Assembly (NCBI GenBank): GCA_029959085.1
Contig: JARWIR010000018.1
Location: forward strand, 1,984,001 to 2,048,000
DNA length: 64,000 bases
Origin: Nemophila menziesii
Lineage: Eukaryota; Streptophyta; Magnoliopsida; Boraginales; Hydrophyllaceae
Direction: 5' to 3'
Below are positions 1 through 64,000 of this stretch, in pieces. The translations under genes were made by a program, and so were the position numbers. Numbering within the stretch: the stretch's first letter is position 1; each line of letters opens with the position of its first letter. The notes beneath the pieces are model-generated. The model worked only from the letters and a program-made list of their open reading frames with translations. It did no database searches and was not told the DNA's origin.

Positions 1-1685
1 TTAGAATCAAGCCCTATATAACATCGTCTTCCATTCATAGTATCGAAAACCCTAATACCGTCCCAAAACTTTCCCTTCCTTATGTCAAACCTTAGCCCCC
101 ATCTTTTATCATCAGTAATTTGTACAATATAGTATTATTTTCTTCAAATTATTTTATAGAATTTAGTTAAATCTCTGATACTTCCTTTCTCAAGGGTTGT
201 TTTCTTTTTCCTCCATCGATCTTCTTCTATACAGGTGAAGTGTTTTTGTTCTTAGATTGATGACCATTGCATTCAATAAATACAAACTTTTGAACAGGTT
301 TAAATTATTCCTTGCTAATATCTTATTTATTTATTCGATCTAAATTATTTCTTCTTTTTTCTAATGGATATATGCTCTCCTTTCATTATTTCAGAAATTT
401 CTAAGTTAAGATTATATTTAAATTCGATATATTAATTTTTAAAATTAAATTAGAGATAATTAATGCTTGAGACAGGATCCAATTTCAATATATTAGTATA
501 TTCAAAAATATTAGAAGGATTCAATCTGTGTATGGATAAAATATACAAAAATATAATAAGGATTAGATCTGTATATGGATAAAAATTTACAAAAATAATC
601 AATACAAAATTTAGATAAATTTTAGAATTTTTTTACTGTTTTTATATTTTGGAATAGAAAAATATAATAATTGAATAGTTAAGAACAAACTCAACATTGT
701 ATGTATCTTTGGAATTGGTCCCTGATTTTAGAAAAGTAACATTTAAACCCCAAGTCTTTTGATCTTGTTACAATGCTGGTAATTTTTTTTATTTTTTATT
801 ATGTTATAATTATATTTTCAAACTTTAATTTATTTTTTTAGGATGAAATTTGGTTGGTTATATAAACTCTAGGTTATTTTGTCCAATATATAGGAACCAT
901 GGGTTTATAGTGTGATATACGGACCTATACTGCAATTTACACAAAAAGAAAAATATCAGGCACTTCTCCTTTTTGACAACACCTTTTCTGAAAAATAATA
1001 TTTAAATCTTGCTTCAAGGCTAAAATATTTCGCTAATTTGTGTTTTAATTTTTCTTTCGTTTTATTTAATTATTGAAATATAAATCAAATAATAAATCTC
1101 TTCCTAAACAGTTTGTATACCACAAAGGGAACACAGGAGTTACAGAAGGTAACACCAAATATTCTCCAAATAGGTGTGATTTTTCCTTTCGTGTAGTTTT
1201 TCACATAAAATAGGGATCTAGTGCAATTTTTTCACAATATAGGGACCTATAGTGCATTTTGTGCTTAAAAAATGATTGTATCTTTGTTTTTCATGACAAT
1301 AGTCCTATATGTCAAAAAGGTGACATTTAAGCCCCTTATTTTTCAATTGTTAGTCACATTTTTTGTATTTTAATTATAAGTTTTGGCTAGTAAAATGACA
1401 CTTTTAGAGCATTTTTGTAATAAAAATAATACATATCTTTAAAAATGATTTCATGTAGATGTGTTTTGCATCTTTTTTTTATCATCAAATCAATTTTATA
1501 TCATTATGAACTCAACTTCATATGTCTTTGCACCTCATAAACCTTTAAACATTAAGCCTAAGTATGTGTATAATACGCCCATTACACATTAATCATTAGA
1601 GTAAAATTAAAACTAAAAGACAAATCAGCCCACTAACTAAATAGACAAGCCACATTATAAAGAAACTATGAGATAATAAAAACTA
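1..1685. other. Unit 1 head: promoter-like start and AT-rich spacer
   Basis: The stretch holds a TATA box (CTATATAA, 14-21) and a telo-box (AAACCCTAA, 47-55). AT-rich DNA follows, with polypyrimidine tracts and CAG motifs (for example near 233) that look like a leader intron of an unidentified gene. Around 700-960 and 1185-1470 are two degenerate copies of a dispersed motif (a 'tttggtccct ... aacatttaagcccc' pattern and 'aatatagggacctatagtgca'). I see no open coding region. Equivalent stretches are 16828-18153, 29585-31275 and 46628-48315. Confidence 0.6.
14..55 (+). promoter_or_regulatory. TATA box and telo-box of an orphan promoter (unit 1)
   Basis: CTATATAA lies at 14-21 and AAACCCTAA at 47-55. 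Copies of the same region further on have one or two TGGGCTT (site II) elements 40-100 bases upstream of the TATA box. TATA plus telo-box plus site II is the usual promoter layout of plant ribosomal-protein and translation genes. No matching coding sequence follows, so this is probably a captured or orphaned promoter. Activity is unknown. Confidence 0.45.
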
Positions 1686-1850
1686 CTAGCCCAACTCTAT
1701 TCTACCAATTATCTCCACCATTCCGGTCTTTTTAAACTTCTTACCTTTGAGCTTCATACTTGTCATATTACATATTTTAGCAATGATTTGATCTTCATTT
1801 AATCCTGCACCTCCATGATCTCTATTGTTTCTTTCCCACCATATCACGTA
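1686..1850 (-). pseudogene. LINE (L1-type) C-terminal remnant, unit 1
   Basis: The minus strand reads an IWWERNNRDHGG motif followed by LNEDQIIAKI and a basic stretch (MKLKGKKFKK). This resembles the extreme C-terminus of plant L1-type ORF2 proteins, which often carry an (I/L)WxERNxR motif after the zf-RVT domain. No reverse transcriptase lies upstream in this frame. The fragment ends at the presumed splice acceptor of the helicase pseudogene on the other strand. Assignment rests on the short motif only. Confidence 0.5.
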
Positions 1851-1855
1851 TACAG

Positions 1856-2328
1856 TATATGAAATTAATAATATCAATTAAACTATTGAAATCACAAGTT
1901 ATTAAAATTACAAAAGATTTTGAAAAATTAGGTATACATGAGGTTAAGGTTGGAAGTGTTGAACAGTTTCAAGGGCAAGAGAGAGAAGTTATTATCGTAT
2001 CTACAGTTTGATCAATACGCAAACACAAGAAAGATGAAAGAAGTAACTCTCTTGGATTAATTAGTAATCCAAGGAGATTTAATGTTGCGATGACACGTGC
2101 TAGATCGTTACTTATAATCGTTGGTGACCCACACATACTGCATAAGGTAAAGTTTTCTTTTTATGTGTTACATGATTAATTGCATTGTTAGTCCTTTTAT
2201 TATGCAAAAGTAGTAAATACATCTTTTGATTATAAATTATAGGATAAGCATTCGAGATCCTGTTATGGTATTGTTCTGATAATGGTTCTTATTAAGGTTG
2301 CGCTTTGCCTGAACAAGAGGACATATGA
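1856..2328 (+). pseudogene. SDE3/MOV10-like RNA helicase fragment, unit 1
   Basis: Two exons of the C-terminal RecA-like domain of an Upf1-type SF1 helicase. Exon 1 (1856-2146) reads VKVGSVEQFQGQEREVIIVS (helicase motif V region), then after an in-frame TGA continues with SNPRRFNVAMTRARSLLIIV (motif VI) and GDPHILHK. A 96-bp GT-AG intron (2147-2242) follows in phase 0. Exon 2 (2243-2328) needs one inserted base to read WYCSDNGSY, then a stop where unit 2 has Gln, then GCALPEQE, matching the C-terminus of SDE3-type proteins. In plants SDE3 acts in RNA silencing. This copy lacks the Walker A half, so it cannot be a working helicase. Confidence 0.85.
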
Positions 2329-62349: not shown

Positions 62350-62893
62350 ATCTCGTTAGGCTAGCTTCTTCTTCGTTACTCCATTAATGCTTTGCGAACG
62401 AAAGCTCAAAATCTCGCGCGGGGTTACTTCCTGCTGTGGAGAGAGACGAAGAGCTGAGGGCTGCTTGATTCGATGTTGGAGTGAGGCGATGGAATGGAGG
62501 GGGCTGCTGGAGTGCTCGAATAGAGGATCTCGTAGTCTTCGTGCTCCTTCTTCAACAGACCAATGCCGCCCCGAACCAGCACCACCATGGAGCTTTGCGT
62601 CTCTGGCTCGTCGGAGCTTCGAGCTTCGTAAAGGCTTCAAGCTACATATCTGCTCAACAGCGGCCTGGATCTTGAACGGAGAGGGCTGCCAGAGTGCTCG
62701 AATAGAGAATCAAGAAGTCTTCGTGCTCCTTCTTCAACGGACCAGCGCCGCCACAGAGCTTTCGTTTCCGGCTTGTCGGAGCTTCGAGCTTCGCAAAGGC
62801 TTCAAGCTACGGATCTCCTTCCTCGCGAACTTAGTGGTCGACAGCTTCCATAGCCAGGAACAGAGCTGGTTGGTCATCGAACGGTGGTGAGAG
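62350..62893 (+). other. GC-richer duplicated ORF region, unit 4 (longest frame)
   Basis: The plus frame 62387-62890 is open for 167 codons through both arms, from MLCERKLKISRG to SQEQSWLVIERW. It is the only copy with the whole frame open. The composition (Arg, Ser and Leu rich) and the frame change between the two arms argue against a conserved protein. No family is recognised. Confidence 0.42.
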
Positions 62894-63333
62894 AATGAGA
62901 GGGCATTTTGTGTAAGTAATGTTCACGTGGTATCATGAGAAATGAATTGTGATTTATAAATTAGGTTAAATAAAATTTGTATATATAGGTTTAAAAAACA
63001 AAAAAAAGTGTAGAGTGGTAAAAACAATTTTGGATTGTAGTGTCAAATCTTATTAGAGGTTTTTTTTAAGAAGAGAAAGAAGATGGGGTTGACATAAGAC
63101 AAGGGGTGTGTGTTAAAGACCCCTTGGGTCAAAATATTCATAATAGCATACCATATCATTGGGTGAATGAGATTAAGTAGGTTACTTCACACAAAAAAAA
63201 ACTAATTGGCCAGGATTCTTAAAATATAATGGGTTTTATAACAATTGGGCTTATATGGTCATCAATGGATTTGAGGCTGACCCAAACCCAAAATAAGAAT
63301 TCATTTGGGCTTATAACTCGGGTGTGAGTGCTT

Positions 63334-64000
63334 TTAGGATCAAGTCCTATATAACATCTATTTCCATTCATAGTATCGAAAACCCTAATGCGCCCCAAAA
63401 CCCTCCCTTCCTTATGTCAAACCTTAGCCCCCATCTTTTATCATCAGTAATTTTTACTATATAGTATCATTTTTTTAAGTTATTTTATAGAATATAGTTA
63501 AATATCTGATGCTTCCTTTCTCAGGGGTTGTTTTCTTTTTCCTCCATCGATCTTCTTCTGTACAGGTGAAGTCTTTTTGTTCTTAGATTGATGACCATTG
63601 CATTTCAATAAAGACAAACTTTTAAGCAGGTTTAATTCATTCCTTTCTAATAGCTTATTTATTTATACGATCTAAATTATTTTTTCTTCTTTCTATTAGA
63701 TATATGCTCTCCTTTCATTATTTCAAAAATTTCTAAGTTAAGATTATATTTACATTAGATATATTAATTTTTAAAATTAAATTGGAGATAATTAATGCTT
63801 GAGACAGGATCCAATTTCAATATATTAGTATATTAAAAAATATAAGAAGGATTCAAGCTGTGTATGGATAAAAATTTACAAAAATATAAGAAGGATTAGA
63901 TCTGTATATGGATAAAAATTTACAAAAATAATCAATACAGAATTTAGATAAATTTTATAATTTCTGTACTGTTCTTATATTTTGGAATAGAAAAATGTAA
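63334..64000 (+). repeat. Macro-repeat unit 5, start only
   Basis: The last 667 bases start a further unit. It shares unit-2 variants (CATCTxTTTCCATTC, AATTTTTACTATATAGTAT, GACAAACTTTTAAGCAGG) rather than those of units 1, 3 and 4. The unit-1-to-unit-2 junction is therefore repeated 46.5 kb downstream. The window ends before any gene fragment. Confidence 0.9.
63348..63388 (+). promoter_or_regulatory. Orphan promoter, start of unit 5
   Basis: TATA box CTATATAA lies at 63348-63355 and telo-box AAACCCTAA at 63380-63388. Two TGGGCTT motifs precede them, near 63247 and 63306. Confidence 0.45.

What the first reader, a model, noticed from the sequence alone, without database searches (positions are those of the whole stretch)
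1..64000. Higher-order tandem repeat of about 46.6 kb built from 12.8-17 kb pseudogene/transposon units
Four large units plus the start of a fifth lie head to tail. The unit-1 start recurs at 46628 (46627 bases on) and the unit-2 start at 63334 (46506 bases on). The variant head of unit 2 reappears only after unit 4, as it does after unit 1. This looks like a three-unit block (1-2-3) repeated as 4-5-..., like a macrosatellite with higher-order structure but made of gene and transposon debris. The repetition is seen directly; the register is inferred from shared variants.
Basis: partly seen in the sequence, partly recalled or inferred. Interest (0 to 1): 0.8.

Follow-up and report, generated by a model that had tools for sequence, protein, structure and literature searches.

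The report
Two-unit tandem array, one unit lost
The window lies inside a roughly 167-kb plant tandem array of two alternating 11-kb and 17-kb units made of transposon debris and a broken helicase-gene end, and the apparent 46.6-kb three-unit period is what is left where a recombination event most likely removed one short unit.

Summary
The repetition is real and the coordinates are right: heads at 1, 16828, 29585, 46628 and 63334. The three-unit, 46.6-kb register is not. With the flanks read (C89:1854001-2118000) the array spans about 167 kb and reads V F V [F V F F V] F, brackets marking window units 1-5. V is the short type (10.7-10.9 kb net of private inserts), F the long type (16.7-17.0 kb). 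A three-unit block predicts F V F left of unit 1; V F V is found. Units 1 and 4 share 2 of 45 informative splits; unit 1 and the nearest F unit on its left share 14 of 45. The higher-order unit is a V-F dimer of about 28 kb. The one F-F junction (units 3-4) is a crossover scar: unit 3's tail is F-type at 11 diagnostic sites, then V-type at 55 of 56, switching between window 44519 and 44749. One V unit was probably deleted there. Unit 5 lacks the copia fragment, but also the LINE and the CACTA MITE, both private to unit 2. Heads carry a 0.8-kb 3' fragment of an SDE3-like RNA helicase gene. Related arrays lie elsewhere, the largest seen on C327.

The parts
1..16827 (+). Unit 1, F type (copy F2 of the array)
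16828..29584 (+). Unit 2, V type (copy V3), 12757 bp with two private insertions, about 10.65 kb without them
29585..46627 (+). Unit 3, F-type body with recombinant F/V tail (copy F3)
46628..63333 (+). Unit 4, F type (copy F4)
63334..64000 (+). Start of unit 5, V type (copy V4); continues to C89:2058257 (10924 bp in all)
1..4083 (+). Shared head module as seen in unit 1 (substitutions: within V 1.8-1.9%, within F 2.2-3.0%, F-V 6.3-7.0%)
1894..2688 (+). 3' fragment of an SDE3-like RNA helicase gene: last 94 codons of the long exon plus downstream sequence; starts in mid-exon; in-frame stop after ...IIVSTV
4084..14550 (.). F-specific middle of unit 1
11021..14550 (-). Copia fragment; RVT_2 by Pfam; gag and RNase H ends judged by eye; ends inside the gag-like frame at 14550/14551; no LTR pair seen in window 8000-15900
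14551..16827 (+). Shared tail module of unit 1 (F-type tail), with a private insert at 15653-15850 carrying GGTTCGAATCC (tRNA B-box-like; label recalled)
18157..19983 (-). LINE 3' fragment (zf-RVT, RVT_3), private to unit 2: V1, V2 and V4 align across the site without it; empty sites printed for V1, V4 and F2
22733..27265 (.). V-specific middle of unit 2
25983..26260 (.). CACTA-type MITE (CACTACAAG...CTTGTAGTG, 3-bp duplication ATC), private to unit 2; empty sites printed for V1, V2 and V4
29324..29482 (.). Short element marking V-type tails (unit 2)
44261..46627 (+). Recombinant tail of unit 3: F-type up to 44747, V-type from 44749 on; carries the V-tail element from 46313
44519..44749 (.). 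Crossover interval in unit 3's tail (F sites at 44519 and 44747, first V site at 44749; the wider interval is kept because 44747 is a single site)

Best explanation
This is a non-coding tandem array of about 167 kb (C89:1902987-2069613) built from two alternating unit types. V is about 10.8 kb. F is about 16.8 kb, with a different middle that includes a copia fragment. A V-F pair was amplified head to tail by unequal homologous exchange. Later a single exchange between the tail of an F unit and the tail of a following V unit removed one V unit, leaving the F-F junction of units 3 and 4. The 46.6-kb recurrence in the window is the result: two dimers minus one V unit. Private insertions (LINE and MITE in unit 2; a CACTA-like element in V1 and an LTR element in V2) came after amplification. 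Shown: order, alternation, sequence classes, recombinant tail, empty sites. Inferred: that the exchange was meiotic or replicative unequal crossing-over, that a V unit was once there, and the timing. Most likely it has no function at the level of the organism.
For: Order V F V F V F F V F over nine units. Head distances: within V 1.77-1.89%, within F1-F4 2.2-2.9%, F-V 6.3-7.0%. In leave-one-out tests over eight heads (V1-V4, F1-F4), 148-158 diagnostic sites keep F and V apart with 0-5 discordant per copy. Tails fall into two classes, F-tail before V heads and V-tail before F heads; unit 3 is the exception, with one clean switch (11 F sites, then 55 V of 56), while the eight other tails (m1F, F1, F2, F4, V1-V4) have 0-4 discordant sites each. 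Unit 3 also carries the V-tail element. Net V lengths 10842, 10765, 10652, 10924. The two types agree on pairing: V1V2|V3V4 14 of 17 splits; F1F2 14 of 45 and F3F5 12 of 45. Edges are degenerate: relics 66-83% similar to V at C89:2072158-2081994 and one 5.6-kb deletion unit near the left end.
Against: Alternation by itself is weak: 9 of 126 orders of 4 V and 5 F alternate at 7 or more of 8 steps (m0 and m1 left out of that count). Within-F divergence exceeds within-V (2.0-3.0% vs 1.45-1.76% in the middles), which a strictly joint dimer amplification does not predict. Nine of the 12 F3+F5 splits sit in one bin and may be gene conversion. The left-edge heads m0 and m1 are mosaic for F and V states, and so are the tails t_m and t_m0. 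Right-edge pieces at C89:2070220-2071235 are still 89-93% similar to F, so decay is not even. Unit 3 could have gained its tail by a long conversion tract plus a separate event. Read support for the junction was not available.
Confidence: 0.85

Rival explanations
1. One reading: a three-unit block (F V F, about 46.6 kb) is the repeating unit, like a macrosatellite higher-order repeat.
For: Spacings 46627 and 46506 and the V head after units 1 and 4; units 4-6 fit F V F; V3 (unit 2) and V4 (unit 5) group in 14 of 17 V splits.
Against: The three units to the left read V F V, not F V F; units 1 and 4 share 2 of 45 splits, and their distance (2.47%) is larger than unit 1 to unit 3 (2.20%) or to F1 (2.04%); unit 5 lacks unit 2's LINE and MITE; unit 3's tail is recombinant. 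The V3-V4 grouping is equally expected under dimers.
Confidence: 0.04
2. The F-F junction of units 3 and 4 is an assembly misjoin between an F tail and a V tail; the true genome has an unbroken V-F alternation.
For: A misjoin would leave the same footprint (one F-to-V switch and one missing V unit).
Against: F and V tails differ by 6.0-8.6%, more than accurate long-read assemblers normally merge (general knowledge, not tested). Copies differ by 1.4-3% and carry private insertions, so they can be told apart.
Confidence: 0.08
3. Gene conversion, not unequal crossing-over, shaped the array; the unit order is an ancestral accident.
For: Patches of unusual similarity (F3+F5, 9 splits in one bin); mosaic m0 and m1 heads.
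Against: F and V heads differ by 6.3-7.0% yet show almost no mixing (0-5 discordant of 148-158 sites in eight heads); conversion alone does not change unit number or make the F-F junction.
Confidence: 0.1

Closest known systems
Macrosatellites (D4Z4, DXZ4, NBL2 in human; PMC8122249, passages read)
   Same: Large units repeated head to tail.
   Different: Units here are 10.7-17 kb against a few kb; they are transposon debris with a broken gene end; 11 heads on C89; copy-number variation unknown.
Higher-order repeats of alpha satellite (PMC8122249, passages)
   Same: A block of diverged monomers (F and V heads 6.3-7.0% apart) recurs with its corresponding members more alike (1.4-3%).
   Different: Far longer unit, a dimer, only 4-5 block copies, centromeric context not tested.
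Long tandem repeats of cereal genomes (PMC6567227, passages)
   Same: Kilobase-scale tandem arrays in a plant genome.
   Different: The wheat monomers named there are 1167-2726 bp; here the units are several times longer and have higher-order structure.
Tandem segmental duplications of plant gene clusters shaped by unequal crossing-over (general knowledge, recalled)
   Same: Multi-kb units, intervening transposons, edge decay, recombinant members.
   Different: No intact gene was found in the unit; what is repeated is a 3' gene fragment plus transposon pieces.

Membership tests
Higher-order tandem repeat (dimer V-F) | A block of two or more diverged monomers recurs as a unit, corresponding members more alike than the monomers inside a block | tested here: met
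   Order V F V F V F F V F; within-type 1.45-3.0%, between-type heads 6.3-7.0%
Higher-order tandem repeat (three-unit 46.6-kb block) | Order F V F repeats in register and unit n is closest to unit n+3 | tested here: not met
   Left flank V F V; unit 1 with unit 4 in 2 of 45 splits
Macrosatellite | Head-to-tail tandem units | tested here: met
   Units follow each other on the + strand
Macrosatellite | Unit of up to a few kilobases | tested here: not met
   Net units about 10.8 and 16.8 kb, against the range quoted in PMC8122249
Macrosatellite | Copy number varies between individuals | not testable with these tools
   One assembly only
Array evolving by unequal crossing-over | Recombinant units at homologous positions, edge copies more diverged than central ones | tested here: met
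   Unit 3 tail switch; relics 66-83% at the right edge, though some pieces there are 89-93%; left-edge heads m0 and m1 5.0-7.3% from F and V heads
SDE3/MOV10-type RNA helicase gene | AAA_11 plus AAA_12 helicase domains in an open frame | tested here: not met
   Array copies hold 94 codons of the exon, with a stop: seen in 9 of 10 C89 copies, the tenth split at that point, and in 5 of 5 fetched C327 copies. The C35 relative has both domains
Copia LTR retrotransposon (complete element) | Two LTRs and gag-pol | tested here: not met
   RVT_2 found but the F-specific block ends inside the gag-like frame at 14551 and no LTR-like pair was seen in window 8000-15900

The most novel reading that the evidence does not exclude
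One ancestral V-F pair seeded several arrays in the same genome, and each took its own higher-order period: V-F dimers on C89; mostly V units on C327, inside three super-blocks 346 and 265 kb apart that are 99.1-99.6% alike at the one 2.5-kb place compared; and F-F next to V on C13. That would be a set of natural replicates of how higher-order repeats are born.
Probability: 0.35. Interest if true: 0.5.

Novelty: new member of a known kind. Interest (0 to 1): 0.35.

Why it matters
The case shows how a short window can suggest a false higher-order period: a dimeric array with one crossover deletion looks like a three-unit block until the flanks are read. The exchange is mapped to about 230 bp, and related arrays in the same genome appear to use different periods, so the birth and loss of higher-order structure can be studied in units long enough to be resolved by ordinary long reads.

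Tried and rejected
Purifying selection on the helicase exon: the 39-aa peptide is 97-100% identical in many copies, which first looked like an active gene; a shared in-frame stop and the mid-exon start argue for a pseudogene fragment. F and V ends homogenised by conversion: rejected, since diagnostic sites hardly mix in the eight central heads. RNA families at gathering score and tRNAs: 0 in the window. Mutation context: C>T singletons per site in F copies CG 5.1%, CHG 9.2%, CHH 4.2%; in V copies CG 5.9%, CHG 3.5%, CHH 2.5%; suggestive of methylation, too weak to use. An LRR-gene origin for the C327 probe L036 was considered; Pfam gave 0 families. PDB search with the 39-aa peptide gave 0. Papers: searches (9 papers; 15 of 52 listed; 6) were seen as listings only and show no title describing this array; (SDE3, helicase, tandem duplication, pseudogene) gave 0 papers. 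The species was not identified.
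Full report
Setting. The window is G000:C89:1984001-2048000, strand +, in a genome of 1,516,695,462 bases in 361 contigs. Transposon types and the helicase relatives (among the 120 best of 1814 listed: Camellia, Davidia, Coffea and other flowering plants) point to a flowering plant; the species was not identified.

Observation. The longest inverted match inside the window is 128 bp.

Flanks. I fetched 200 kb beyond the window, C89:1854001-2118000, and mapped units 1 (F) and 2 (V) onto it. 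The array runs from about 1902987 to 2069613. From left to right: a V-like middle and tail without head (1902987-1909244), a 5.6-kb deletion unit (m0, head 1909373; its head joins the tail directly, F 3195 to F 14579, with a 4-bp overlap), an F-like unit (m1, head 1914998, 18.8 kb with inserts), then V1 1933839, F1 1952334, V2 1969161, F2 1984001 (unit 1), V3 2000828 (unit 2), F3 2013585 (unit 3), F4 2030628 (unit 4), V4 2047334 (unit 5), F5 2058258 (truncated, without the helicase fragment). m0 and m1 heads are 5.0-6.6% from F and 7.0-7.3% from V heads and were left out of the alternation count; counting m1 as F would continue the alternation leftwards. To the right lie relics 66-83% similar to V at 2072158-2081994, and F-like pieces 89-93% similar at 2070220-2071235. 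Flank open frames of 180 aa or more look mostly like transposon genes (judged by eye).

Why not three units. Period three predicts F V F left of unit 1; V F V is present. Among the F1-F5 middles (9900 gap-free columns) there are 45 informative two-way splits: F1+F2 14, F3+F5 12, F4+F5 6, F1+F3 4, F3+F4 3, F2+F4 2, F1+F4 2, F2+F3 1, F2+F5 1. Distances from unit 1: F1 2.04%, unit 3 2.20%, unit 4 2.47%. Singletons (84-143 per copy) outnumber shared sites, so the F copies are close to a star. Among V copies V1V2|V3V4 has 14 of 17 splits and V1V4 3. The LINE (18157-19983) and the CACTA MITE (25983-26260, duplication ATC) are absent from unit 5 and from V1 and V2; they are unit-2 insertions.

The crossover scar. 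F-tails (m1F, F1, F2, F4) and V-tails (V1-V4) differ at 67 fixed diagnostic sites. Unit 3's tail, not used to define them, has the F state at the first 11 (window 44296-44747) and the V state at 55 of the remaining 56, from 44749 on. In leave-one-out tests the eight defining tails have 0-4 discordant sites each; the edge tails t_m and t_m0 are mosaic. Unit 3 also carries the short V-tail element at 46313; its exact start word was found in the V1, V3, V4 and unit-3 tails, not in the V2 tail nor in any F tail. The simplest reading is one exchange between an F tail and the tail of the next V unit, deleting that V unit. The arithmetic fits: a V-F dimer is 27.75-27.97 kb net; two dimers less one V (10.9 kb) plus unit 2's LINE and MITE (2.1 kb) gives about 46.7-47.1 kb, against 46.6 kb observed.

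What the unit is made of. Head (F 1-4083) and tail (F 14551-16827) are shared. The middles differ: F has a 10.5-kb middle with a copia fragment on the minus strand (RVT_2) that ends inside a gag-like frame at 14551; V has a 4.5-kb middle. F and V middles share short stretches, the longest 427 and 590 bp at about 70%, although their heads differ by 6.3-7.0%, so one lineage probably changed its middle (inference). The head holds F 1894-2688, 80.4% (F) and 81.8% (V4) identical to the 3' end of a helicase gene at C35:27.176 Mb. That gene's 496-aa open frame has AAA_11 and AAA_12; several of its named relatives are called 'probable RNA helicase SDE3'; its nearest solved structures by sequence are UPF1 helicases. 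Array copies keep 94 codons of the exon with an in-frame stop, seen in 9 of 10 C89 copies (the tenth is split there) and 5 of 5 fetched C327 copies. Capture and stop thus probably predate the split between arrays.

Relatives in the genome. The 39-aa exon query found 50 places: 10 on C89, 24 on C327, 6 on C35, 2 on C13, 2 on C325, and 1 each on C100, C60, C79, C49, C1 and C337, the C325, C49, C1 and C337 matches being weak. V-middle DNA is listed on C89, C327 (30 pieces of about 1 kb or more), C60, C13 and C1; F-middle DNA on C89, C327 (one nearly full copy and short 80% pieces), C13, C100, C111, C349, C78 and a few others. These DNA searches score only 40 candidates, so counts are lower bounds. 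The one C327 unit that I could read whole has a V-type middle (91-92% to V4); the fetched stretch also holds a different copia beyond the next tail. On C327 a group of V-middle pieces recurs from 138, 484 and 750 kb with nearly the same inner spacing; 2.5-kb stretches from the three are 99.1% (A-B), 99.2% (A-C) and 99.6% (B-C) identical. A probe from C327:265001-267000 has four further full-length copies at 99% on C327. On C13 the order read is V-middle, head, F-middle, head, F-middle. I could not read C327 or C13 in full.

Timing. With a rate of 7e-9 per site per year (recalled, not checked), 1.45-1.8% between V copies gives about 1-1.3 million years; F copies give somewhat more. The LTR element in V2 has LTRs 99.78% identical over 922 bp (2 mismatches), so it is much younger than the amplification.

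Literature. Searches were seen as listings; passages of PMC8122249 and PMC6567227 were read. The wheat long tandem repeats in the latter have 1167-2726-bp monomers; macrosatellites in the former reach a few kb. The mechanism (unequal exchange, edge decay, dimeric higher-order units) is known; I found no earlier description of this array in those four searches.

Verdict. Real array, corrected register, ordinary mechanism, unusually clear footprint.

Noticed in passing
G000:C327 from about 138, 484 and 750 kb (L032, L033, L034): Three super-blocks with nearly the same inner unit spacing, 346 and 265 kb apart, 99.1-99.6% identical in the 2.5-kb stretches compared; a possible large recent duplication or an assembly effect.
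   Followed up: partly
L035:708-3270 (G000:C307): A 2.56-kb palindrome (arms of about 1.28 kb, 97.7% identical) made of the array's head element, next to a tail piece.
   Followed up: partly
G000:C35:27106877-27176645: Six SDE3-like helicase matches with open frames of 496-533 aa within 70 kb: a gene cluster related to the fragment in the array; only one of the six was fetched.
   Followed up: partly
C89:1973639-1977714 (left flank, unit V2): A 4.07-kb LTR element with LTRs of 922 bp differing at 2 sites; a recent insertion.
   Followed up: yes
C89:1941643-1949296 (left flank, unit V1): A 7.65-kb insertion with a 3-bp overlap at its ends and a 672-aa open frame that looks like a CACTA-type transposon protein (label recalled, not searched).
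   Followed up: partly
window 15653-15850: A private 198-bp insert in unit 1 with two copies of a 48-bp motif containing GGTTCGAATCC, resembling a tRNA-derived SINE (label recalled).
   Followed up: no
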